Positions 29,280 through 43,318 of a stretch of 64,000 bases of DNA are shown here, in pieces. Position 1 is the stretch's first letter; every line of letters begins with the position of its first letter. Made by a program: the position numbers and the translations under genes. Source of the stretch: Strongyloides papillosus (lineage: Eukaryota > Nematoda > Chromadorea > Rhabditida > Strongyloididae); NCBI GenBank assembly GCA_005656395.1, contig SRSI01000037.1:124001-188000 (forward strand). The letters run 5' to 3'. The notes under the pieces are model-generated. The model saw only the letters and a list, made by a program, of their open reading frames with translations. It searched no databases and was not told the DNA's origin.

Positions 29280-30616
29280 ATGCTACGAACTATTAATGTG
29301 AAATATATACTGATAAATTTAACATTCATCATATCGATAATTGTAAGTTGTTTCTTGTAATTTTTAATGGCAAATTTTAAAGTTTTGTGACATGATGAGA
29401 GATATTGACAGTGAGGAAGAATTTCTCAGAGATAGAAGAGCTATCCTTAAGAAGCAAGACTTCTTTTGGAAATTCCCAATAAATTATTTCATAAGTCCAG
29501 GTGTTAATAAAGAAAGTGTTGCAAAAGCAATAAATTTCATACAAAGTGAAACATGTATAACATTTAAACAAGTGTACGACCTCCAAACTGCCATAGGTCT
29601 CAATTTTGTCTCAGATCAAGGATGTTTTGCCTTTACTGGTAGAGTTGAAAATACAACAACACAAGAGGTTGGTGTAGCGAAAGAATGCTCCACACCCGGG
29701 TGGGTTCAACATTTTATTGGACATTCACTTGGATTATTTCACCAAGAAGTTCGTCATGACAGAGGTAAATATGTTAGAATTTTAAGAAAAAATATCAGGC
29801 CAAAAAAATGGAGGGATTTCAAGTTAAATAGAAAAGCAGAAGTAATAACATATAATTTTAAATATGATTTTGGAGGTCTTATGCAAAGTAATAAAACAGC
29901 AAAAACAAGAAACGGAAGGTGGACAATTCAACCTTATAATAGAAATTATATCCAAACAATAGGACAAACAACTAGATTAAGTTTTAATGAAATAAAAACA
30001 TTAAATTATTATTATTGCAGTAGAAGATGTCCCAAAAAATTGAAGTGTGACAATCGTGGGTAGGTAAATAAATTTTATTAAGTGGTGTCACCCACATAAT
30101 TTAACACGTATAAATATTAAAGTTAAATTCAAATTTCACAATAATAACATTATATTTTATTTAAATAATCAAATATTATAATTTGATTACAGGTATACTA
30201 ACCCTAAAAATTGTAACGTTTGTAAGTGTCCCAGAATTTATGCTGGTAATAGGTGCCAATTAATAGCACCATCATCACCTGGTTGTCCAAGAGTTTACAT
30301 AAGATCAACGGAACGCCCAAAAATAATATTAATAAGAGGTATAAAAAATTGTTACCATCAAATTAAGACTACAAGAGGTTTCAAAATAAGAATGGTATTG
30401 TTAGAAGCCAGTTTACCTAAAACAAAACTTTGTACACCTGACCAAGGATTAGAGATAAAATTTTTTAGGGATAAAACAGTTACAGGAAATCTCTTTTGTG
30501 GTATAAGAAGGAATGTTGTTATAAGATCGAAAGGATATCATGTTAGTTTTCACTACCGTGGGACACAGCCATTTCATTATATCAGATTATTGCACCAAAG
30601 AGTTAGAGGCCCATAA
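29280..30616 (+). CDS. Astacin-family protein 1, catalytic Glu replaced by Phe
   Basis: Three exons (29280-29342, 29383-30059, 30193-30616) join in frame to about 387 residues. Exon 1 is a signal peptide (MLRTINVKYILINLTFIISII). Then come a short prosegment ending RDRRAI (furin-like), an astacin domain, an EGF-like domain (GYTNPKNCNVCKCP) and a CUB-like domain. The zinc motif at 29710-29742 reads HFIGHSLGLFH: all three histidine ligands of HExxHxxGxxH are present but the catalytic Glu is Phe. The Met-turn is GGLMQSN, keeping Met but lacking the usual Tyr. So zinc may bind but hydrolysis is unlikely. It is the first of five tandem paralogs and the only one with an intron between the catalytic and EGF parts. 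The cysteines of all domains are kept, which argues for a folded secreted product. Confidence 0.92.
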
Positions 30617-31227
30617 AATTTTTTGCTTTTTATAAACACTATAGTTCACTTGTAAATTTATATTTTATATATAAATTTTTATAAAATATTATTAAATAAA
30701 GACATAATTTTAATTTATTAATATTAAGTTATAACTTTACTACACAAAATTTGATTAAACATGTTTCCCTAATGTAAGTTAATAAAGATTTTTGTGTCAA
30801 AATACTATTCTTTTTTAGAATATAAAAACATTTATTGTTTATATGATTGCTATGATTTATCTTTCGCGTTAATTGAAGTACACGGAATTGAAGAAACGCT
30901 TTAAAATCTTTTCCTTATTCATTAATAACAATCACAATGTCATTAAAACTTTTTTAACCAAAATGTGCCCCAATTGATTTCAAAATCGAATTTCCTTTTA
31001 ACACTAAAATTAAAGTCAATCAAACAAATATCAAAAAAATTATAAACTTCAACACATAAAAACTTACCACCCTAATAATAATTATAGAATTGTTTTGGTG
31101 GAACCAAATGTAAATATTTTTAAATTACTATAAAAATTAACATCCTAATATTTTATCAGGTGTCCAAAGATGAAAATATTTTATATATTATTTAATTTTT
31201 AAAGTAAAACAATATTTTTTTTCTATA
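30617..31227. other. Spacer between astacin 1 and astacin 2
   Basis: About 610 bp, AT-rich, no ORF. AATAAA near 30695 may serve as polyadenylation signal of astacin 1. Confidence 0.45.
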
Positions 31228-32466
31228 ATGCATCTTTTTTTTATTAATTATTTAAAATTATCATTTATACTAAACGTGTTACTCTTGGTATGTCAAGATT
31301 TTTGCCTTTTTTAACTAATTTAACTTTATTAGAGTTTAACAAACAAATACATTTATGGTAGGAGGGTATTAGAAAATGAGAAGAAAAAATTTCCTTTTCC
31401 TAATTATCAATTGGAGAGGAGGAAAAGAGGAGTTTACAAAAAAATGCCTTTTAAATGGGTGTTTCCTATTCCATACACAGTTGAAGATCCTGTAAATAGG
31501 ACAATAATTGATGAAGCAATAAATTTTATTCAAAATGAAACTTGTATAAGATTTAAATATGTTGATAAACTCAATGAAACCGGAATAAAATACATTAACG
31601 GAAAGGGATGCTTTTCTATTGTTGGAAAACTTTCACAAACCGAGCCTCAAAATATTACAATTGGAAGGGACTGTGAAAGAGTTGGGATTGTTCAACATGA
31701 AACAAGTCATGCTCTTGGTTTACTTCATGAACACACCAGAGATGATAGAGATAATTATATTAATATTGAGTATAATAATATTAATAAAGAGTATTGGCTA
31801 GATTTTCAAAAATTTAATGATTCTTGGTCTGATACCTATAACTTAAGATATGATTATGGTTCAGCCTTACATTATGAAACATATGCTGGTACTAAAAATT
31901 TACAACAATCAATTAAACTAAAAGATTATGTTTATTCAAAAACTGTGGGCCAAAGGTCACAATTAAGTTTTAATGATATTAAACTTTTAAACCTTTATTA
32001 TTGTTCTTCAATCTGTAAGAATGATTTAGAATGTTATGATAAGGGATATTCAAACCCAAACGATTGTACCAGATGTAAGTGCCCTCGACTTTTAGATGGT
32101 AAAAAGTGCCAAAAATTAAAAAAATCTGATAAGTTTTGTGGAAAACAACTACTAGAAGCTAAATTTTATAGGAAAAAGCTCCAAGTGTATGGAAGAAAAA
32201 GTTGCTATTTCAAAATATTTACAGATCCTGGTTACAAAGTAAGAATAAAAATTAAGAAATTACGCGTGAGAAGTTCAGATATATGTGAGCCAAATAGTAG
32301 CATTGAAATTAATTACCTGCAAAATAAGGCTGTTTCAGGAGCAATGTTTTGTGGACGCTCAAAGAATATTATTTTAAAAAGTGAAGGGACAGATGCAATC
32401 ATACATTATATTGGTTTAAGACCAATAGATTTTATGGAATTACAATATAGAAAAATAAAAATTTAA
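31228..32466 (+). CDS. Astacin metallopeptidase 2, catalytic motif intact
   Basis: Exons 31228-31287 (signal peptide MHLFFINYLKLSFILNVLLL) and 31333-32466, 45-nt intron, 397 residues. The short propeptide ends ERRKRGVY, a convertase-type site. The zinc site at 31696-31728 is HETSHALGLLH followed by EHTRDDRD, the full astacin signature HExxHxxGxxHExxRxDR. The Met-turn reads YGSALHYE, with Leu in place of the conserved Met and the Tyr kept. An EGF-like segment (GYSNPNDCTRCKCP) and a CUB-like domain follow. It is the only member of the five-gene array expected to be a working zinc endopeptidase. Strongyloides astacins are secreted by skin-penetrating larvae and parasitic females, and a role in host tissue or gut is inferred only from the family. 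Confidence 0.95.
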
Positions 32467-32966
32467 AATAAAGTGATTACACAATTCAAAATAAATAGGT
32501 AATATTAGTATAGTAATTAAATGTTATAAAAAATAAAGTGCATAATTTTGTCCTATTAATAAAAGTTTGATAAGCTAATAATCTCTCATATTGGGCATAT
32601 TATTCGATTTTAACATCATATTTTGTTATAAAATAATACAATAAATACTAAATCATAATATCACTATATTTACTAATATACTGTAATTTACCAGTAAAAC
32701 AAAAGTTAAAGCAGAAAAAAAATTTTTTAACATACAGACATAAAAAATTTGTTTTCAAATATTAGAGTAAACATTTTGCAAAGTTCAATTTATGATTTAA
32801 TTAGCAGAAAGAAAACTTTATTAAATTTAATAACATGAAATTTCAAAAAATATTTGATATTTTTTAAAGTACGTTCAAAGTTATTTAATCAGGTGAGAAT
32901 ATCTTAACAAATAATAATAAATATATCAAATAATTCTAAAGTTTTTCTTGTATTGCCCATTGAAAA
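32467..32966. other. Spacer between astacin 2 and astacin 3
   Basis: About 500 bp of AT-rich DNA without ORF or recognised element; promoter of astacin 3 expected. Confidence 0.45.
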
Positions 32967-34205
32967 ATGATTGTAACACTATATTTTTATCAATTTCTTT
33001 TTGTATTTGGGTTTTTCAAGGTATGAAATAAAAAATTAAGAGTTTACTATATTTTTTAATTTTAGTTAACTCATTCAAACACTACCAAAATAAATTATTT
33101 TAGTTACGAAAATTCAGAATCTAGTATACTTAGAAGGAAAAGAGCCATCCTTAGAAAACAAGATTTCCAATGGACATTTCCAATAAGTTACTATGTATCA
33201 AAAGGCGTTAATGCCGACTACGTAAACCTGGCAATCAAAGGTATTGAAAAAGAAACATGTATAAGATTCAAAAAAATAGACAGCTTAGTTAATGCAACTG
33301 GCCTAAATTTTGTCTCAAATCAAGGTTGCTCATCATTCGCCGGAAGGGTCGAAAATACCACATATCAGGAGGTTGGAATTGTTAGTGGATGCAATACCAC
33401 CGCCTGGATTCAACATATGATTCTCCATTCATTAGGTCTTTTACATGAAGAGGATCGTCCCGATAGAAACCGTTATGTTATAATCAAAAAAGGAAATATT
33501 ATTAAGAAAAAGATAAGTTCATTTAATAAAAACACTCCAAATGAAGTTAAAACTTATAATCTTATGTATGATTATGGCTCGTTAATGCAAAGCAATGGAA
33601 CAGCTTTTTCAAAGAACGGCCAACCAACTGTTGTCCCAATAAACAGACATTTCAATAGAAGGATTGGTTTTGCAAGAGGACTAAGTTTTAATGATGCAAA
33701 ACTTTTAAATCTTCATTATTGTTATTCAAAATGTCCCATAAAACAGATATGCGATAATCTCGGATATTCAAATCCAAACGATTGTACCAGGTGTAAGTGC
33801 CCAGGCAATTATATGGGAAGAAATTGCGAATTAATAGGACCAAATTCACCTGGGTGCGGTAGAGTTTACCTCAGAGGGACATTAAATGCAAAATACCTAC
33901 GTGTTGGTGGAGTTAAAAATTGTCATTACCAAATAAAAACATTTCCAAGATCAAGAATAAGAATGCTAATTGAGTCAGCAAACCTTCCGACACCAAAACA
34001 CTGCGTAATCAACACGGGATTGGAGATTAAATATTTTAGAGATAAAACAGTGATGGGAGCAACATATTGTGGCATTTTTTATTATCACGAGTTGACATCA
34101 ACAGGATATCATGTATCAATACACTATAATGGCTTCGAACCAAAAAATTATTTTAAATTAAAATATTGGAGAAGGAGACCAAGAATATATTATGGAGGTG
34201 TGTAG
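32967..34205 (+). CDS. Astacin-family protein 3, catalytic Glu replaced by Met
   Basis: Exons 32967-33020 (signal peptide MIVTLYFYQFLFVFGFFK) and 33066-34205, 45-nt intron, 397 residues. The start was found upstream of the first in-frame Met of the main exon, by the matching phase-0 intron and hydrophobic leader shared with its paralogs. Prosegment ends RRKRAIL. The zinc motif at 33414-33446 reads HMILHSLGLLHEEDRPDR: three histidines kept, catalytic Glu is Met. Met-turn YGSLMQSNGTAFS. EGF-like (GYSNPNDCTRCKCP) and CUB-like domains intact. It shares with astacin 1 the KQDF..FPI start and the MQSN turn, so these two are likely closest relatives. Probably zinc-binding but inactive. Confidence 0.93.
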
Positions 34206-34467
34206 TTTATTCAACCTTTTATTTAATTAAAAACAATTTTTTTTATTATTTTATATTTAATTTTGTTTCAATTGTTTTCCCTAAGTTAAAAGGAATATTT
34301 TAACTTTTTTGTTATTCACTATTAGTACATTATAATTAATTTATAATATATGAATAAAAACTTCCGACTAATACTATTATTAACATTTAATCTGCTGATT
34401 TTTGGTATCATAATATTTTTATTATTATAAAAGGATTTTTTTTACACACTATAACGTTATTTTTCAA

Positions 34468-35664
34468 ATGGGAAAAATATTAACATGTATTTTTTTAATG
34501 CTTTCATCTACCTTTTTTGACGTAAGTTCCTCTTTTAATGATTATATATAATTAAAATAGACAAAAAATTATGCGGAAAATGTTGATGATACCATAAGCT
34601 TTGACAGTAATATAAGTATGTCCAATATCCGACTCAAAAGAGCCATATTTAAAAATGTCCAACCAAAATGGACATTTCCAATAAAATATTCAGTTGGGAG
34701 TAGTGTCAATCCACAATTAATTGAAGACGTTTTGAATGATATTAGACAACAAACCTGTTTAACATTTCAAAAAGTCTCAAGTTTCCAAGGCATAGGAATC
34801 AAATATGTTAAAGGAGCCTCATGTGGAATTTTTAGCAAAGACTACACACCCGTTATCATTGGTATTGCATCATTCTGTGGTAAAAAAGGAAAAATTCTGA
34901 AGAAAACACTAAATATTCTAGGTTTATTGGATGAAGAAGACAGACCCAACAGAAATAATTATGTTACAATTAATTTTCAAAATGTTGTTGATAGCGTACG
35001 TTTTGAATTAAATTCTAAAGACCCATCGGTTGTTAATTCATACAACTTACGATACGACTATGGTTCCATTATGCATAACGGAAAATATTACGTTAGTAAG
35101 AATGGGAAAATGACAATTGTCCCAAAAAATAAATTGTACTTCGATACAATAGGACAGATTGCACAATTAGGTTTTAACGATGTGAAAACTTTAAACATGT
35201 ATTATTGTTCTTCAAAATGCTCAACTAAACTGAGTTGTTTAAATGGATCTTACTTAAACCCCAAGAATTGTAGTCAATGCAAGTGCCCCAGATTTTTCAC
35301 TGGGACACTTTGTGGACAAATTTTTTCATCAGTAAGTAGTTGTGGTAATACTAAACTAACTGCAACTTCAACAGTACAAACATTTCAAGTTTCAGGGAAT
35401 AAGGATTGTATATTTCAAATATCTGCACCAACTGGTTCGAAAGTTAAGTTAGTTATATTGAATACAAATCTACCAGCTAGAAATCCCTGTCCACCAATTG
35501 TTGGATTAGAAATTAAATTTCTAGATGACAAATCAGTTTCTGGTGCAACATTTTGTGGCAACAAAAAAAATATTGTAATTACATCTGTAAATAATATTAT
35601 TTTACTAAAATATAAGGGATTGCTTCAAAGTAATAGTGCAAGGTTTTCGTATGTTAAAGTTTAA
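34468..35664 (+). CDS. Astacin-family pseudoprotease 4, all zinc ligands lost
   Basis: Exons 34468-34521 (signal peptide MGKILTCIFLMLSSTFFD) and 34561-35664, 39-nt intron, 385 residues. Prosegment ends IRLKRAIF. At 34900-34932 the site aligned with HExxHxxGxxH reads KKTLNILGLLD: the three His ligands are Lys, Asn and Asp and the Glu is Lys, while the flanking GLL and DEEDRPNR parts are still recognisable. Met-turn YGSIMHNG. EGF-like (SYLNPKNCSQCKCP) and CUB-like domains are intact with no stop or frameshift. It cannot bind zinc in the usual way. The intact frame and cysteines suggest a binding or decoy role rather than decay. Function unknown. Confidence 0.92.
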
Positions 35665-36238
35665 ACAATTTCTATGAATAAGAATATATATTAATTGTAA
35701 TCTTTGATTTTATACTAATCTTCTTATGTCATTGTTTTTTTATTATATAAGTCTTATACCTTGTAATATTATTTCATTGCTTAACGAATAGTTTACATTG
35801 TATAAGTAAGTTTTAATATATCTATGTTTCCATTGTAATTGTAAAATTTAAGGTGGCCACTTATAGCTATTATAGTTAGTAATAAACGCCAATCAAATAT
35901 TATATTTACTCTTTAATATTTTACTTATGTCTTTATTTTTTTGCCAAAAATAAATAAATCTTATATTTTTTATATAAACCTGTCGGAGACTATGCATCCA
36001 CACAGCTTTGTTTACCTTTCTACGAATTTTACTTTGAATTTAAAAAAAAATTAGAACCACTCTTCATTCCGTAACTTGGCTAGTTATTAATTTATTTTAG
36101 AATAAACATTTTGGATTTATCGATAGTATGTGTTAATAATATTTAATATGCTTTAAAAAAATTAAATAAAATAAACTTTTTTCAGAAAAATATTTTCCAA
36201 TTTAATATTTATTATATAAAATTTAGTCTCAATTTTGA
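35665..36238. other. 3' intergenic region, astacin 4 and DUF273 gene converge
   Basis: About 570 bp between convergent 3' ends. It contains one copy (36067-36100) of a roughly 34-bp direct repeat whose other copy lies beyond the DUF273 gene. Otherwise AT-rich and featureless. Confidence 0.45.
36067..36100 (+). repeat. Direct repeat, left copy, flanking DUF273 gene
   Basis: TTCCGTAACTTGGCTAGTTA and following bases match 37557-37590 at roughly 29-30 of 34 positions, in the same orientation. The two copies flank the opposite-strand glycosyltransferase gene. Confidence 0.55.
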
Positions 36239-37375
36239 CTAAATAATATATTTCTTAAAGTACCCACTATCCTTTAGATCCCTCATAAATTCATTTCTTA
36301 CTTGAGTTACACGTTTTCCAATAAGTTCATCTCTATATGAACATTCAACAAAACTATTATTTTTAAAACTCCATAAATTTGCTAGCGATCGATTACTACA
36401 TTCTTCATGATTGAATACAAATTCATCAATTCCTACGTATGGCATTGCTGATTGTAGGTCTTTATATCCGTGAAGAAGAAAATCTTTTTTGCAAAATAAA
36501 TGATTTGTTATATGTCCATCTCTAATCCACCTTCTTTCTGATTCTTTTCCAACAACAACTACCTTCCCATTATCAAATGTCATCAACTTTGTTGATATAG
36601 GTGTTTCTGATGCTTTTTCTAATAAATACATCATGCATGATTCAAAATCCCATATGTCATCCCAATTTTGTGATTTATTCCACACTTCATAACAAATCTT
36701 TCTTTCATCTAAAAATCTAGTTTTTTCAAATTTTTCTAAAAATAATGCCTGAATAGCAGCATTATCACGACCGTACATGCTTTTAGGAACTCTATAATAA
36801 AAATTTGCGAAATCTCTCAAAAAGTTTCTACTATAATTTGAGTTTTTAAAAAAAAAACTACCACATGCAATTTCATAGTTAAAAATTCTTGAATATAACA
36901 GAAATTCTTCATTACCTCTTGGAGCAAATTCAACTAGTGAATGATACGGATTGATAACAGCTGTATCCGCATCAACAAATAGTACATAATCAATTTCCTT
37001 GTGTAATTCTAAATATTCTGCTAAAAAACAATGTCTAACAAACATAATATCAGATTGTTTACATATTTTCCCTATTTCTGGCTCATTCTTCATTTCTACA
37101 GTTATGTACGTATAATTAAAAGCATGAGTATAACAATGAACAGTGTCTGTTGCAAATTTATATTTTCCTGAAGGAATGCTATCAACAACAGCTATGATAG
37201 CATATCTTTTACCATAATCTTCATGATTTACTTTGAAGTGCTCAATTTGTTTAGTACAATTATCTGTATTGTAAAATTTTGAAAAAATCATAGTTCTTGA
37301 TTTTATATTTAGAAAAAATATTATTGATATAATATATAAAATTAATAAAATAATAAATGCTATTTTGTGCCTCAT
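36239..37375 (-). CDS. DUF273-type glycosyltransferase, type II membrane protein
   Basis: Single-exon 378-residue protein on the strand opposite to the surrounding astacins. A short cytosolic N-terminus (MRHK) precedes one transmembrane anchor (about residues 5-23), as in Golgi enzymes. The lumenal domain begins with YAIIAVVDSIPSGKY, then HCYTHAFNYTYI, RHCFLAEYL, and the acceptor/metal site YVLFVDADTAVINP with the DxD motif at about residues 135-137. GRDNAAIQALFLEKF and LLHGYKD follow. This series is that of the nematode DUF273 family, related to GMA12/MNN10 galactosyl- or mannosyltransferases. Expected role: sugar-nucleotide-dependent glycosylation in the Golgi; donor and acceptor unknown. 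Several N-glycosylation sequons. Flanked by short direct repeats. Confidence 0.9.
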   Translation of the reverse strand: MRHKIAFIILLILYIISIIFFLNIKSRTMIFSKFYNTDNCTKQIEHFKVNHEDYGKRYAIIAVVDSIPSGKYKFATDTVHCYTHAFNYTYITVEMKNEPEIGKICKQSDIMFVRHCFLAEYLELHKEIDYVLFVDADTAVINPYHSLVEFAPRGNEEFLLYSRIFNYEIACGSFFFKNSNYSRNFLRDFANFYYRVPKSMYGRDNAAIQALFLEKFEKTRFLDERKICYEVWNKSQNWDDIWDFESCMMYLLEKASETPISTKLMTFDNGKVVVVGKESERRWIRDGHITNHLFCKKDFLLHGYKDLQSAMPYVGIDEFVFNHEECSNRSLANLWSFKNNSFVECSYRDELIGKRVTQVRNEFMRDLKDSGYFKKYII

Positions 37376-38145
37376 GCTTTAAAAAATAATTTTTCCATAT
37401 AACACCAAAATATTTTATATTTAAGCATTTCTAATATTAATCATAACTACAAAACATTTTTATTTAACCAGACGAAGGCTAAGTTTCCATTTCACTCTGT
37501 TTGACATTTCATTTATTGTATTTAGAGTTTTTTAATAAAAACTGTACCATTTTATGTTCCATAACTTGACTAGTTATCAATTTATTTTGATAACATTAAG
37601 TTTTTTTTATTTTGGTGTTGACTTTTTAAATGTTTTATAAATCATTTCATTTTAATAATTTAAGAGAAAATTATCCTTTGTACAAAACTATATTAAAAAC
37701 GTTTTTTTGAGAATAACTTAGCCGATTTTAGCTAAAAATATCTGAAAGCTATCTACCTCTCTAGTTAAAAAAATATATCTGTTGACTATTTATTCATAAA
37801 AATCCGTTAAGTTTGAAAACATCCAAAATAAAGAAAAAACTTATTTATTTATTTTACTATAAAAATAAAAATTTATACAAAAAATATCAAACTAAGGTAA
37901 ACAGAAAGTTTATAGATTGTGAACTTTAGAATTAAAAATTGTTAAATTTCACGAGTTAATTGTGCAAAATATTTGATTATGGGAAATATTTAACTTTATA
38001 TAGAAAAAAAATTATAAAAATCAAACAATGAAAAGTACGATAAAACAAAAAGTTAATTTTATAAAAATGATAAAATTTGCAATATCCATCACATTTTTTC
38101 TGCTATAATATCACCTTTTTTTATGTATTATACATAATAAAAAAT
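37376..38145. other. Divergent intergenic region (DUF273 / astacin 5)
   Basis: About 770 bp, AT-rich. It holds the right copy of the direct repeat (37557-37590) and should hold promoters for both neighbours. No ORF. Confidence 0.45.
37557..37590 (+). repeat. Direct repeat, right copy, flanking DUF273 gene
   Basis: TTCCATAACTTGACTAGTTA and following bases; partner of 36067-36100. Confidence 0.55.
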
Positions 38146-39350
38146 ATGATAGCTAGAATTCTTTGCAATCTTTCAATTATTTATTTTACCACTATAAATG
38201 TAAGTAGGAATGAATAATGTATTTAAAAAATTTTTTTGTTAAGATTAAATGTTATGTTGAAGCCAACGAGATTAATATGCTATCAGAAAGTGATACTGTT
38301 GAGAATCGTAAAAGAGATAAGAGAGCTATCTTTAATCCTGTTGAACCTGAATGGATACCTCCAATACCTTACCTTATTGATGATCTAGAACTTGAAGATT
38401 TTGTTGAGCAAGTACTTTTTGATATTGAAAATAACACATGTCTTACTTTTGAAAGGATCACAGATCGCCAAGATTATATGATAGAATATGTCAAGGGAAC
38501 CAGCGATTGTAAAATTACTAAAGAAGATTTTGACATAAAAACAGTCAATGTAGCTCCACATTGCAGAACACTTGGAGCAGTATATCAAATGACATTAAAA
38601 GTTTTGGGATTAATTAATGAAGAAAGAAGGCCTGATAGAAATAATTATGTAAGTATTAGAAGAAATAACATTTATCAAAATAAGAGAAGAAAGTTTAATA
38701 TTATACCAAGAAGTGATTTGGATTTAACAGGCTTAAGATATGATTTCGGATCCATATTACACAACGGAAGGCGTTATGAAAGTCGAAATGGACTGATGAC
38801 AATAATCCCAAAGAATTCTTATTACCTCAAAACGATTGGTCAAACTAAGGAAATGAGTTTTAATGATGTTAAATCATTAAACATGTACTACTGTTCTGAT
38901 GTCTGCTTAGATGACCTTGATTGTCTTAATGGAGCTTATCCAGATCCCAAAGATTGTACCAAGTGCAGGTGCCCAAGATTTTATACCGGAAAACGTTGTG
39001 GTCTAATAGCTAACACTACAGATGACTGTGGAACAACTAAATTAACAGCAAACAGTACGATTCAAATTTTAGAAATAAGTGGAGTAAAAAGTTGCATCTA
39101 TCAAATTGTTGCACCAGAATTGTATAATGTTGAACTTGCTATTGAAGAATATGATTTCCCAGCTAGAAGTGTCTGCCCACCAGACTTTGGTTTAGAAATA
39201 AAATTTCTATTTGATAAATCTGTTGCTGGTCCCAGATTTTGTGGCTATCAAAAAAATGTTTTCTTACAATCAGTAGGTCGAGGTTTGACAATGAAATATG
39301 TTGGAACCCGTGACACAGATTATGTGAAAATGTTTTATTATCAGAAATAA
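38146..39350 (+). CDS. Astacin-family pseudoprotease 5, all zinc ligands lost
   Basis: Exons 38146-38199 (signal peptide MIARILCNLSIIYFTTIN) and 38244-39350, 44-nt intron, 386 residues. Prosegment ends RDKRAIF. The site aligned with HExxHxxGxxH (38586-38618) reads QMTLKVLGLIN, so all zinc ligands and the catalytic Glu are replaced, yet EERRPDRNNY just after is conserved. Met-turn FGSILHNG. EGF-like (AYPDPKDCTKCRCP) and CUB-like domains intact. Shared words with astacin 4 (TIGQ, FNDVK, LNMYYC, TKLTA, PARS/PARN-CPP) make these two sister genes, separated by the DUF273 gene. Predicted secreted, non-proteolytic. Confidence 0.92.
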
Positions 39351-41539: not shown

Positions 41540-43318
41540 ATGTTTAAAATTCCATACTTTAGACTATCATTTTTATTACTGATATTCTTCACTTTCGAGA
41601 CTTACTTAAGTGCCAAAGTAGTAGAAACACCAGTTGGATCTATTCGAGGAAGAGATCTTGTAAGTTATAATAACAAAAAATTAATACATTTTTAGGAATT
41701 TTCCGATGGAAAAGTCTCAGAATACTTAGGAGTTCCATTTGCCTATCCACCAATAGGTGAATATAGATTTAAAGCTCCTGTAGAATTGTTGAAACCAGCT
41801 TGGAATGGCACTAGAGATGCATCTATACCAGCAACATCTTGTATGCAATATATTAAGAATATTAATTTTTCTGGATACGATGATCTTAATCCAAAAAATT
41901 TGATAAGCGAAGATTGTTTGGAATTAAATATGTGGGTTCCTGAAAAACATTCTGGTAACGTGATTGTTTTCATTTTTGGTGGTAGTTACAATTTTGGATC
42001 ACCCTCACTAGATATTTATAATGGATCTATACTTGCTTTGAAATCAGAATCAATTATTGTTAATCTCAACTATAGATTAGGAATATTTGGATTTGGCTAT
42101 TTAGGTGAAGATAGTCAAGTAAAAGGAAATATGGGATTTCTAGACCAACAAGTAGGGTTAAAATGGGTCCATGACAACATTGCTGCTTTTGGTGGTGACC
42201 CATCTAAAGTAACTCTATTTGGTGAAAGCGCCGGTGCAGCATCGGTTACAGCACATTTACTTTCTGAAGGTAGTCATCCATACTTCAGCAAAGTTATCGT
42301 TAGTTCTGGAGTAATCTCGAATTTATGGGCAACAGTAACAGAAGAAATTGCTAAAGAAAATACAATTAGCGTTTCAAAACTTCTAGGATGTAAGGGAAAT
42401 GATTCAGAAGTATTACAATGTCTTCAAAAAGTAGATGCAACTACTTTGTTATTAACATCACTTAGTGTAAGTCATCCAAAGCAATTACCACTACACATTA
42501 CATTTTTCCCAATTGATAAAGATAAAGTATTTTTCAAAGGATCCGTTGAAGAAAAATTAAAAAAATGGGATATAAAAAGTGATGCTGATATGTTAATTGG
42601 CAGAACAGCTGATGAAGCAACTTATTTTATGCCTTTGCTACTAGAAAAATATGGCTGCAAATTTGATCCATCACAAAAAGTTAATTCTATCGTGAATCAA
42701 TGTTTATTGGATGATAGAATATTTGCAGGTGTAATTCAAATGATTTCTAACATGACGGGCTTTAACGAAAGCGAAATGATGTATTTATACAGTGCATATT
42801 ATAATGTAAAAATAAAAAAAACAAGAGGTAAAGTTGCCAGATTACTTGCTGATTTCTTATTTGATTGCACTGTCGCTACATTTGCTCAAAACTATCATGA
42901 TAAAACAAAGAGAAAAGTTTATTTCTATGAATATAAAAAGCGTTCGCCAATCAACCCTTGGCCGAAGTGGATGGGGGCCATGCATGGGTGGGAATTAGAG
43001 CACATATTTGGATATCCGTTCAGATATCCTGGAAAATACCAAGAAAAAGAATTAGAAGCTGAAAAAGAATTTTCAGGAAAATTAATAGAGTATATTAGAA
43101 ATTTTGTAGCTTCTGGAAACCCAGGCGCAACGTGGAAACAATTTGGAGGAGAAATTAGCAAAGCATTGGTTATAAGCCAAAGTATTACAGATCCAGAATA
43201 CGATAAACATGTTAATGCACGTCCAAAAACATGTAAAGGTCTTGATATGGTGTTTTCAGAATTTGCAGGACGAAAAATAAGAGAGTATATGGAAAGTCTT
43301 ATGCCAAAAACTGATTAA
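41540..43318 (+). CDS. Acetylcholinesterase-like type B carboxylesterase, secreted
   Basis: Exons 41540-41659 and 41696-43318 (36-nt intron), 580 residues; an in-frame Met at 41516 could add eight residues. Signal peptide, then the alpha/beta-hydrolase fold. Catalytic triad complete: Ser218 in FGESAGAAS, Glu347 in RTADEATYF, His470 in GAMHGWELEHIFGYP. SEDCLELNMW is the family cysteine motif, and MHGWELEHIFG plus FVASGNPG resembles acetylcholinesterase. The loop before it reads FSGYDDLNPK, where the electric-ray enzyme has FSGSEMWNPN: the choline-binding Trp84 is Leu104 here (codon 41885-41887). So an ester hydrolase is expected, but efficient acetylcholine binding is doubtful. No C-terminal GPI or tetramerisation tail. 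AChE-like genes are expanded in Strongyloides. Confidence 0.93.

What the first reader, a model, noticed from the sequence alone, without database searches (positions are those of the whole stretch)
29280..39350. Five-gene astacin array with graded loss of catalytic residues but intact frames
Reading the zinc site in order: HFIGHSLGLFH, HETSHALGLLH, HMILHSLGLLH, KKTLNILGLLD, QMTLKVLGLIN. One gene is complete, two lose only the catalytic Glu, two lose Glu and all three zinc His. All five keep signal peptide, convertase site, EGF, CUB, cysteines and the R-P-x-R segment after the site, with no stop. Retained structure beside abolished chemistry suggests selection for non-proteolytic secreted functions (binding, inhibition, decoy, partner of the active gene) rather than simple decay. 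This is the best candidate in the window for an undescribed system: a secreted pseudoprotease set encoded beside one active paralog.
Basis: partly seen in the sequence, partly recalled or inferred. Interest (0 to 1): 0.85.

Follow-up and report, generated by a model that had tools for sequence, protein, structure and literature searches.

The report
Ancient dead-site astacins in threadworms
Four of five neighbouring astacin protease genes in this threadworm have lost the residues needed to cut proteins, yet related threadworms carry the same disabled genes well preserved, so the proteins probably do another job such as binding.

Summary
Five intact astacin genes (29280-39350) have a signal exon, an R-x-K/R-R site, and astacin, EGF-like and CUB-like regions. 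Gene 2 keeps HExxHxxGxxH. Genes 1 and 3 lack the catalytic Glu but keep all three zinc His; genes 4 and 5 lack Glu and all three His. All four also lack the distant Met-turn Tyr. Two details are wrong: R-P-x-R is in 3 of 5 genes, and genes 1 and 3 lose more than Glu.

New here: ten orthologs of the inactive genes (S. papillosus, S. ratti, S. stercoralis, Parastrongyloides trichosuri), all ten inactive at the same site. Gene 4's site is letter-identical in S. stercoralis and P. trichosuri; its dead domain is 89% identical to S. stercoralis, against 68% for active gene 2 versus S. ratti. The losses predate the genus split, and the proteins are constrained: pseudoproteases, not decay.

The array is not unique (24 further non-canonical astacin places were read elsewhere in the genome), and nothing found ties the set to gene 2. 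Most likely function (inferred): secreted binding proteins, genes 1/3 as zinc-bearing non-cleaving traps, genes 4/5 with a rebuilt cleft. Expression and dN/dS of the array were not testable.

The parts
29280..30616 (+). Gene 1, inactive astacin: exons 29280-29342, 29383-30059, 30193-30616; 387 aa
   Evidence: Exon join checked; Pfam Astacin 142 bits; orthologs P0006 S. papillosus, P0008 S. ratti
29710..29745 (+). Gene 1 ex-active site HFIGHSLGLFHQ: Glu lost, three His kept; Met-turn GLMQS lacks Tyr
31228..32466 (+). Gene 2, astacin with complete zinc motif: exons 31228-31287, 31333-32466; 397 aa
   Evidence: orthologs P0010, P0013
31696..31731 (+). Gene 2 zinc site HETSHALGLLHE; Met-turn SALHY (Leu for Met, Tyr kept)
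32967..34205 (+). Gene 3, inactive astacin: exons 32967-33020, 33066-34205; 397 aa
   Evidence: orthologs P0005, P0007, P0009; mean pLDDT 88, astacin and CUB structures among its fold matches
33414..33449 (+). Gene 3 ex-active site HMILHSLGLLHE: Glu replaced by Met, three His kept; Met-turn SLMQS
34468..35664 (+). Gene 4, inactive astacin, with the highest ortholog identity found outside S. papillosus: exons 34468-34521, 34561-35664; 385 aa
34900..34935 (+). Gene 4 ex-active site KKTLNILGLLDE: Glu and all zinc His replaced; letter-identical in S. stercoralis and P. trichosuri; Met-turn SIMHN
36239..37378 (-). DUF273 gene between genes 4 and 5 (interrupts the array, not part of it)
38146..39350 (+). 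Gene 5, inactive astacin, least conserved of the five: exons 38146-38199, 38244-39350; 386 aa
   Evidence: orthologs P0001, P0002, P0003
38586..38621 (+). Gene 5 ex-active site QMTLKVLGLINE: Glu and all zinc His replaced; Met-turn SILHN

Best explanation
Genes 1, 3, 4 and 5 encode secreted, folded astacin-EGF-CUB proteins that cannot work as astacin peptidases and have been kept by selection since before Strongyloides and Parastrongyloides split. Shown: the losses, the intact frames here, the shared losses in orthologs, and the protein conservation. Inferred: they act by binding. Genes 1/3 keep the three zinc His in all seven sequences of their clade, with Phe, Met or Leu in place of Glu, so they probably still hold zinc and a ligand in the cleft without cutting it (a trap for substrates, or for active-site-directed astacin inhibitors such as host fetuin-B). 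Genes 4/5 have replaced the whole metal site and probably use a rebuilt cleft and the CUB domain as a protein-binding surface. My split: selected non-proteolytic function about 0.93; binding or competition at the worm-host interface as the specific role about 0.4.
For: Ten orthologs all lack Glu and/or zinc His at the same site; 9 of 10 lack Glu, and the exception, P. trichosuri P0003 (REVLKALGLINE), lacks all three His. Catalytic-domain identity: gene 4 vs S. stercoralis 168/189, vs P. trichosuri 142/187; gene 3 vs S. ratti 148/193; active gene 2 vs S. ratti 130/192; gene 1 vs S. ratti 122/193; gene 5 vs S. ratti 96/188. The gene 4 ex-site segment is 25/26 identical in both species; against the rest of the domain this is significant for P. 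trichosuri (117/161, p=0.006), not for S. stercoralis (p=0.32). Unconstrained sequence of this composition would hold about 32 stops per 385 codons. Zinc-free tree: both inactive pairs are 100/100 clades containing P. trichosuri. Fold retained in the two genes modelled. Fetuin-B blocks the astacin cleft and zinc (PMC6400186, abstract and passages). Astacins dominate the genes upregulated in Strongyloides parasitic females, though some are upregulated in free-living females (PMC5979966, passages).
Against: No expression, secretion, zinc-content or binding data for these particular genes. dN/dS of the array not obtained. The orthologs are predicted protein records, which would not show a broken frame as such. 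Conservation of the ex-active helix may be structural. Gene 5 is less conserved than active gene 2, and so is gene 1 in the catalytic domain (63% vs 68%; over the whole protein 64.6% vs 62.5%). Three capped searches returned no S. venezuelensis ortholog of any inactive gene and only the gene 4 ortholog from S. stercoralis. In other inactive families of this genome the median pairwise dN/dS is 0.57, against 0.44 in active controls: constrained, but somewhat looser. Nothing ties any of the four to a host ligand rather than a worm one.
Confidence: 0.7

Rival explanations
1. They are regulatory or structural partners of an active astacin, in the array (gene 2) or elsewhere, assembling into mixed oligomers or blocking its substrates.
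For: Genes 1-4 are adjacent and in one orientation here; S. papillosus record numbers C131, C132, C133, C136 follow the same order. Grouping of gene 2 with genes 4/5 is not rejected (p=0.24). Pseudopeptidases that regulate active relatives are known in other families (PMC11266112, abstract and passages).
Against: Gene 2 is sister to neither inactive pair in the tree, grouping with genes 1/3 is rejected at p=0.036, and it is less conserved than genes 3 and 4. The P. trichosuri records A0A0N5A147, A148 and A149 are the gene 3, 4 and 5 orthologs in a row; no gene 2 ortholog from that species was in the lists.
Confidence: 0.25
2. They serve the worm's own body (cuticle, gut lining, pharynx, moulting) as matrix or signalling proteins rather than acting on the host.
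For: C. elegans astacins act in the pharynx and on cuticle components (PMC2824743, passages). Gene 4's high conservation is unlike a host-driven arms race; high genetic diversity, though no consistent diversifying selection, is reported for S. ratti expansion clusters (PMC10575991, passages).
Against: The family as a whole is most upregulated in parasitic stages (PMC5979966), though these genes were not singled out.
Confidence: 0.28
3. Ordinary pseudogenes or decaying duplicates caught before their first stop.
For: Catalytic residues are gone; large tandem families often leave dead copies, and astacin places with stops exist elsewhere in this genome.
Against: Same kind of loss in ten orthologs, with up to 89% identity in the dead domain outside S. 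papillosus; a neutral copy at saturation would hold about 32 stops.
Confidence: 0.03
4. A changed but working enzyme: another metal or residue set takes over catalysis.
For: Genes 1/3 keep all three zinc His in 7 of 7 sequences of their clade.
Against: The Met-turn Tyr is lost in 35 of 35 non-canonical sequences of the 71-row set, along with the general base in nearly all; genes 4/5 keep none of the usual ligands.
Confidence: 0.04

Closest known systems
Astacin family M12A (Pfam PF01400; crayfish astacin 1ast, meprins, BMP1)
   Different: Four of five lack the general base, genes 4/5 also all zinc His, and all four the Met-turn Tyr; FxGD pro-segment motif absent in all five
Scabies mite inactivated protease paralogues (SMIPP-S and SMIPP-C)
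   Same: Multi-copy secreted inactive paralogs of active parasite proteases; shown to inhibit complement (PMC4031079, title and start of abstract) or alter clotting (PMC7815109, abstract and passages)
   Different: Serine or cysteine protease folds, not metzincins; their function has been measured, here it has not
Pseudopeptidase ADAMs (ADAM2, 7, 11, 18, 22, 23; C. elegans UNC-71)
   Same: Metzincin domains with HExxH replaced (for example QTLGQNLGMMWN in ADAM11), some of which act by assembling complexes (PMC11266112, abstract and passages)
   Different: Single-pass membrane ADAMs, not secreted astacins; they typically keep the Met-turn
Strongyloides astacin expansion (184 genes in S. ratti, 237 in S. 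stercoralis; PMC10676818, passages)
   Same: This array is part of that expansion
   Different: In the passages I saw the expansion is discussed as proteases; 31 of 105 sites read here are non-canonical (not a random sample)

Membership tests
Astacin family (Pfam PF01400) by homology | Astacin domain above curated cut-off | tested here: met
   All five, 107-182 bits vs 22.5
Astacin family (Pfam PF01400) by homology | Astacin fold | tested here: met
Active astacin peptidase M12A | HExxHxxGxxH zinc motif with general base Glu | tested here: not met
   Met in gene 2 only; genes 1, 3, 4 and 5 fail
Active astacin peptidase M12A | Met-turn with Tyr ligand (Y149) | tested here: not met
   Tyr kept in gene 2 only; Ser, Ser, Asn, Asn in genes 1, 3, 4, 5
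Active astacin peptidase M12A | FxGD aspartate-switch pro-segment (motif recalled) | tested here: not met
   No FxGD in the first 200 residues of any of the five, active gene 2 included; found in 5 of 35 fetched records
Pseudoprotease (selected, inactive homolog) | Catalytic residues lost while fold and frame are kept | tested here: met
Pseudoprotease (selected, inactive homolog) | Loss shared by orthologs and protein conserved | tested here: met
   Ten of ten orthologs found
Pseudoprotease (selected, inactive homolog) | dN/dS below 1 on its own branch | not testable with these tools
   No orthologous DNA held; array paralogs saturated. Other inactive families of this genome: 36 unsaturated pairs, 0.12-1.02, median 0.57
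SMIPP-like immune-evasion pseudoproteases | Multi-copy set of inactive paralogs with secretion signals | tested here: inconclusive
   28 of 86 readable places non-canonical; first exons of the four array genes look like signal peptides by eye, no predictor run, secretion not measured
SMIPP-like immune-evasion pseudoproteases | Blocks host complement or coagulation | not testable with these tools
   Needs purified protein

The most novel reading that the evidence does not exclude
The astacin expansion taken as the protease arsenal of Strongyloididae hides an old pseudoprotease repertoire that arose by more than one loss, tens of genes in this genome, secreted as non-cutting binders. In the gene 4 lineage the metal site H-E-H-H-Y has been replaced by K-K-N-D-N, fixed across two genera, making a new ligand-binding cleft.
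Probability: 0.45. Interest if true: 0.8.

Novelty: new variant of a known kind. Interest (0 to 1): 0.62.

Why it matters
Astacin expansion is a leading genomic mark of parasitism in Strongyloides, and counts such as 184 and 237 genes are discussed as tissue-digesting proteases. If a sizeable part is dead and old, the expansion also encodes binding proteins, vaccine and inhibitor work on the family must tell the two apart, and gene 4 becomes a well-defined protein, conserved also in human-infective S. stercoralis, whose ligand can be looked for directly.

Tried and rejected
dN/dS on the array: paralogs saturated (valid pairs pS 0.62-0.73); the gene 1 rows are invalid because I joined its third exon one base off (13 stops), put right. 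One search used first-exon coordinates that were off, corrected. Families elsewhere: 36 unsaturated inactive pairs 0.12-1.02 (median 0.57; 4 more saturated), 25 active pairs 0.24-1.51 (median 0.44); pairs are not independent.

One loss for all: an AU test rejects all 34 inactive rows as one clade (p=0.011). One loss for the two array pairs: the tree places them apart, but the AU test does not reject one clade (p=0.259). So two losses in the array are preferred, one is not excluded.

Literature: ten searches gave no paper that I saw describing inactive Strongyloides astacins. Hunt 2016 (PMC4948059) and PMC5381570 (cited in PMC10676818, on gene families of S. papillosus) are not held; Martin-Galiano and Sotillo 2022 was seen only as a citation. 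So absence from print is not shown. Passages on astacins were seen in PMC9848320 (plus section 11), PMC10676818, PMC5979966, PMC10575991, PMC10676819 and PMC6327390; PMC11266112 mentions astacins once.

Free-living relatives: at E up to 1e-40 the and 23 lists held only Strongyloides and Parastrongyloides; candidate lists are limited, so absence elsewhere is not shown. Not found in the three searches: P. trichosuri gene 1 and 2, S. ratti gene 4, S. papillosus gene 4, S. stercoralis genes 1, 2, 3 and 5, and any S. venezuelensis ortholog of the inactive genes; not evidence of loss. Consecutive record numbers as synteny is inference. The FastTree run put genes 1/3 beside the large inactive group (0.965); the mixture-model tree does not.
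Full report
Where it lies. The window is part of a 58.2-Mb, 79-contig genome (G000:C37:124001-188000). The named records closest to the array proteins are Strongyloides papillosus at 96.6-99.5% identity (genes 1, 2, 3 and 5), so the worm is S. papillosus or a near relative. No relatives' DNA is held for it.

The sites. Gene 1 HFIGHSLGLFHQ, gene 2 HETSHALGLLHE, gene 3 HMILHSLGLLHE, gene 4 KKTLNILGLLDE, gene 5 QMTLKVLGLINE. In crayfish astacin the ligands and base are H92, E93, H96, H102 and Y149, with M147 in the Met-turn (PMC6400186, passages). The Tyr, some 50 residues on, is an independent check: in 71 aligned sequences it is present in 36 of 36 canonical and 0 of 35 non-canonical ones. By genomic place, 56 of 58 canonical places have it (the other two show a gap there and lie at a locus end), and 1 of 28 non-canonical places has it, L085, which was not in the 71. 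Gene 2 keeps the Tyr but has Leu for the Met.

Orthologs. Protein searches returned orthologs with these sites: gene 1, S. papillosus HFIGHSLGLFHQ and S. ratti HMIGHSLGLLHE; gene 3, S. papillosus HMILHSLGLLHE, S. ratti HMILHSLGVLHE, P. trichosuri HLVLHSLGVLHE; gene 4, S. stercoralis and P. trichosuri both KKTLNILGLLDE; gene 5, S. papillosus QMTLKVLGLINE, S. ratti QLTLNALGLIYE, P. trichosuri REVLKALGLINE. That is ten, seven of them from species other than S. papillosus. Gene 2 orthologs (S. papillosus, S. ratti) are canonical. No S. venezuelensis ortholog of an inactive gene, and from S. stercoralis only that of gene 4, was in the capped lists. P. trichosuri records A0A0N5A147, A148 and A149 are the gene 3, 4 and 5 orthologs in a row, and S. 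papillosus C131, C132, C133 and C136 follow genes 1, 2, 3 and 5; this suggests, but does not show, conserved order.

Conservation. Catalytic-domain identities are 89% (gene 4, S. stercoralis), 77% (gene 3, S. ratti), 68% (active gene 2, S. ratti), 63% (gene 1, S. ratti) and 51% (gene 5, S. ratti); against P. trichosuri 76% for gene 4, 62% for gene 3 and 42% for gene 5. S. ratti and S. stercoralis were treated as equally distant from the window species (recalled, not tested). Genes 3 and 4 are thus better kept than the active neighbour; gene 5 is not, and gene 1 is about level with it (whole protein 64.6% vs 62.5%). Random codons at this composition include 8.3% stops, about 32 per 385 codons; the five genes here have none. 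The orthologs are predicted protein records, so their lack of stops is not by itself evidence, but their conservation is.

History. A mixture-model tree with the zinc and Met-turn columns removed (70 rows) gives 100/100 clades for genes 1+3 and for 4+5, each holding P. trichosuri sequences, so each loss and the duplication within each pair appear to predate the split of the genera. They lie apart among active genes, and a third, larger inactive group lies elsewhere; at least three changes are forced by starred branches. An AU test rejects all inactive rows as one clade (p=0.011) but does not reject one clade for the two array pairs (p=0.259). Gene 2 is sister to neither pair in the tree; holding it with genes 1/3 is rejected (p=0.036), holding it with genes 4/5 is not (p=0.24).

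Rest of the genome. Four searches gave 193 merged astacin places (a lower bound from capped lists). Of 87 places held in full, 86 have a readable site: 58 canonical and 28 not, 24 of the latter outside the array, including a KK.L..LGLIPT group and an HM....FGL group. These were chosen partly for likeness to an inactive protein. A random 20 of 103 (of 106 unread places, 3 being too short) gave 16 canonical, 3 non-canonical and 1 unreadable. Recent inactive paralogs have dN/dS 0.12-1.02 (median 0.57) in 36 unsaturated pairs, active ones 0.24-1.51 (median 0.44) in 25: most inactive pairs are constrained, somewhat less than the active ones.

Reading. Old, shared, constrained loss in folded secreted proteins is the signature of pseudoproteases. 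Genes 1/3 keep a zinc triad without a base, the make-up of a non-cleaving trap; genes 4/5 have rebuilt the site. What they bind is unknown. Host fetuin-B, which plugs astacin clefts, is one testable ligand for genes 1/3; scabies mite inactive proteases are the closest functional precedent. A worm-internal role is about as likely for slow-evolving gene 4. Ten literature searches showed me no earlier description, but main genome papers are not held, so priority is not claimed.

Noticed in passing
L110 = G000:C37:474687-474916 (same contig, outside the window): A further inactive astacin with a gene 5-like site, QLTLKMLGIYDV
   Followed up: partly
L075-L080, L083, L085 (contigs C27, C15, C40, C30, C14): Eight related open astacin-like places share KK(V/I)(L/M)M(Y/F)LGLIPT in place of the zinc site; L085 alone has a Tyr at the Met-turn position
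   Followed up: partly
window 30060-30192: Gene 1 alone has a second intron here; donor GTAGGT lies 4 nt before a GTAAAT whose use would leave an in-frame TAG. The protein of the S. papillosus record P0006 fits the same junction.
   Followed up: partly
P0006 (S. papillosus A0A0N5C131): The deposited gene 1 protein starts at an internal Met and omits the signal exon seen here at 29280-29342
   Followed up: no
window 31228-32466: Gene 2, the only canonical gene, has Leu for the Met-turn Met; S. ratti also has Leu there
   Followed up: partly
window 29280-39350: None of the five genes, active gene 2 included, has the FxGD aspartate-switch motif in its short pro-segment
   Followed up: partly
P0030 (P. 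trichosuri A0A0N4ZZF1): Another inactive astacin with Gln for the catalytic Glu and all His kept (HQIGHALGLLHQ)
   Followed up: no
window 36239-37378, minus strand: DUF273 gene between genes 4 and 5
   Followed up: no
window 41696-43318, plus strand: Carboxylesterase-family gene just downstream of the array; acetylcholinesterases are another expanded Strongyloides family, membership not tested here
   Followed up: no
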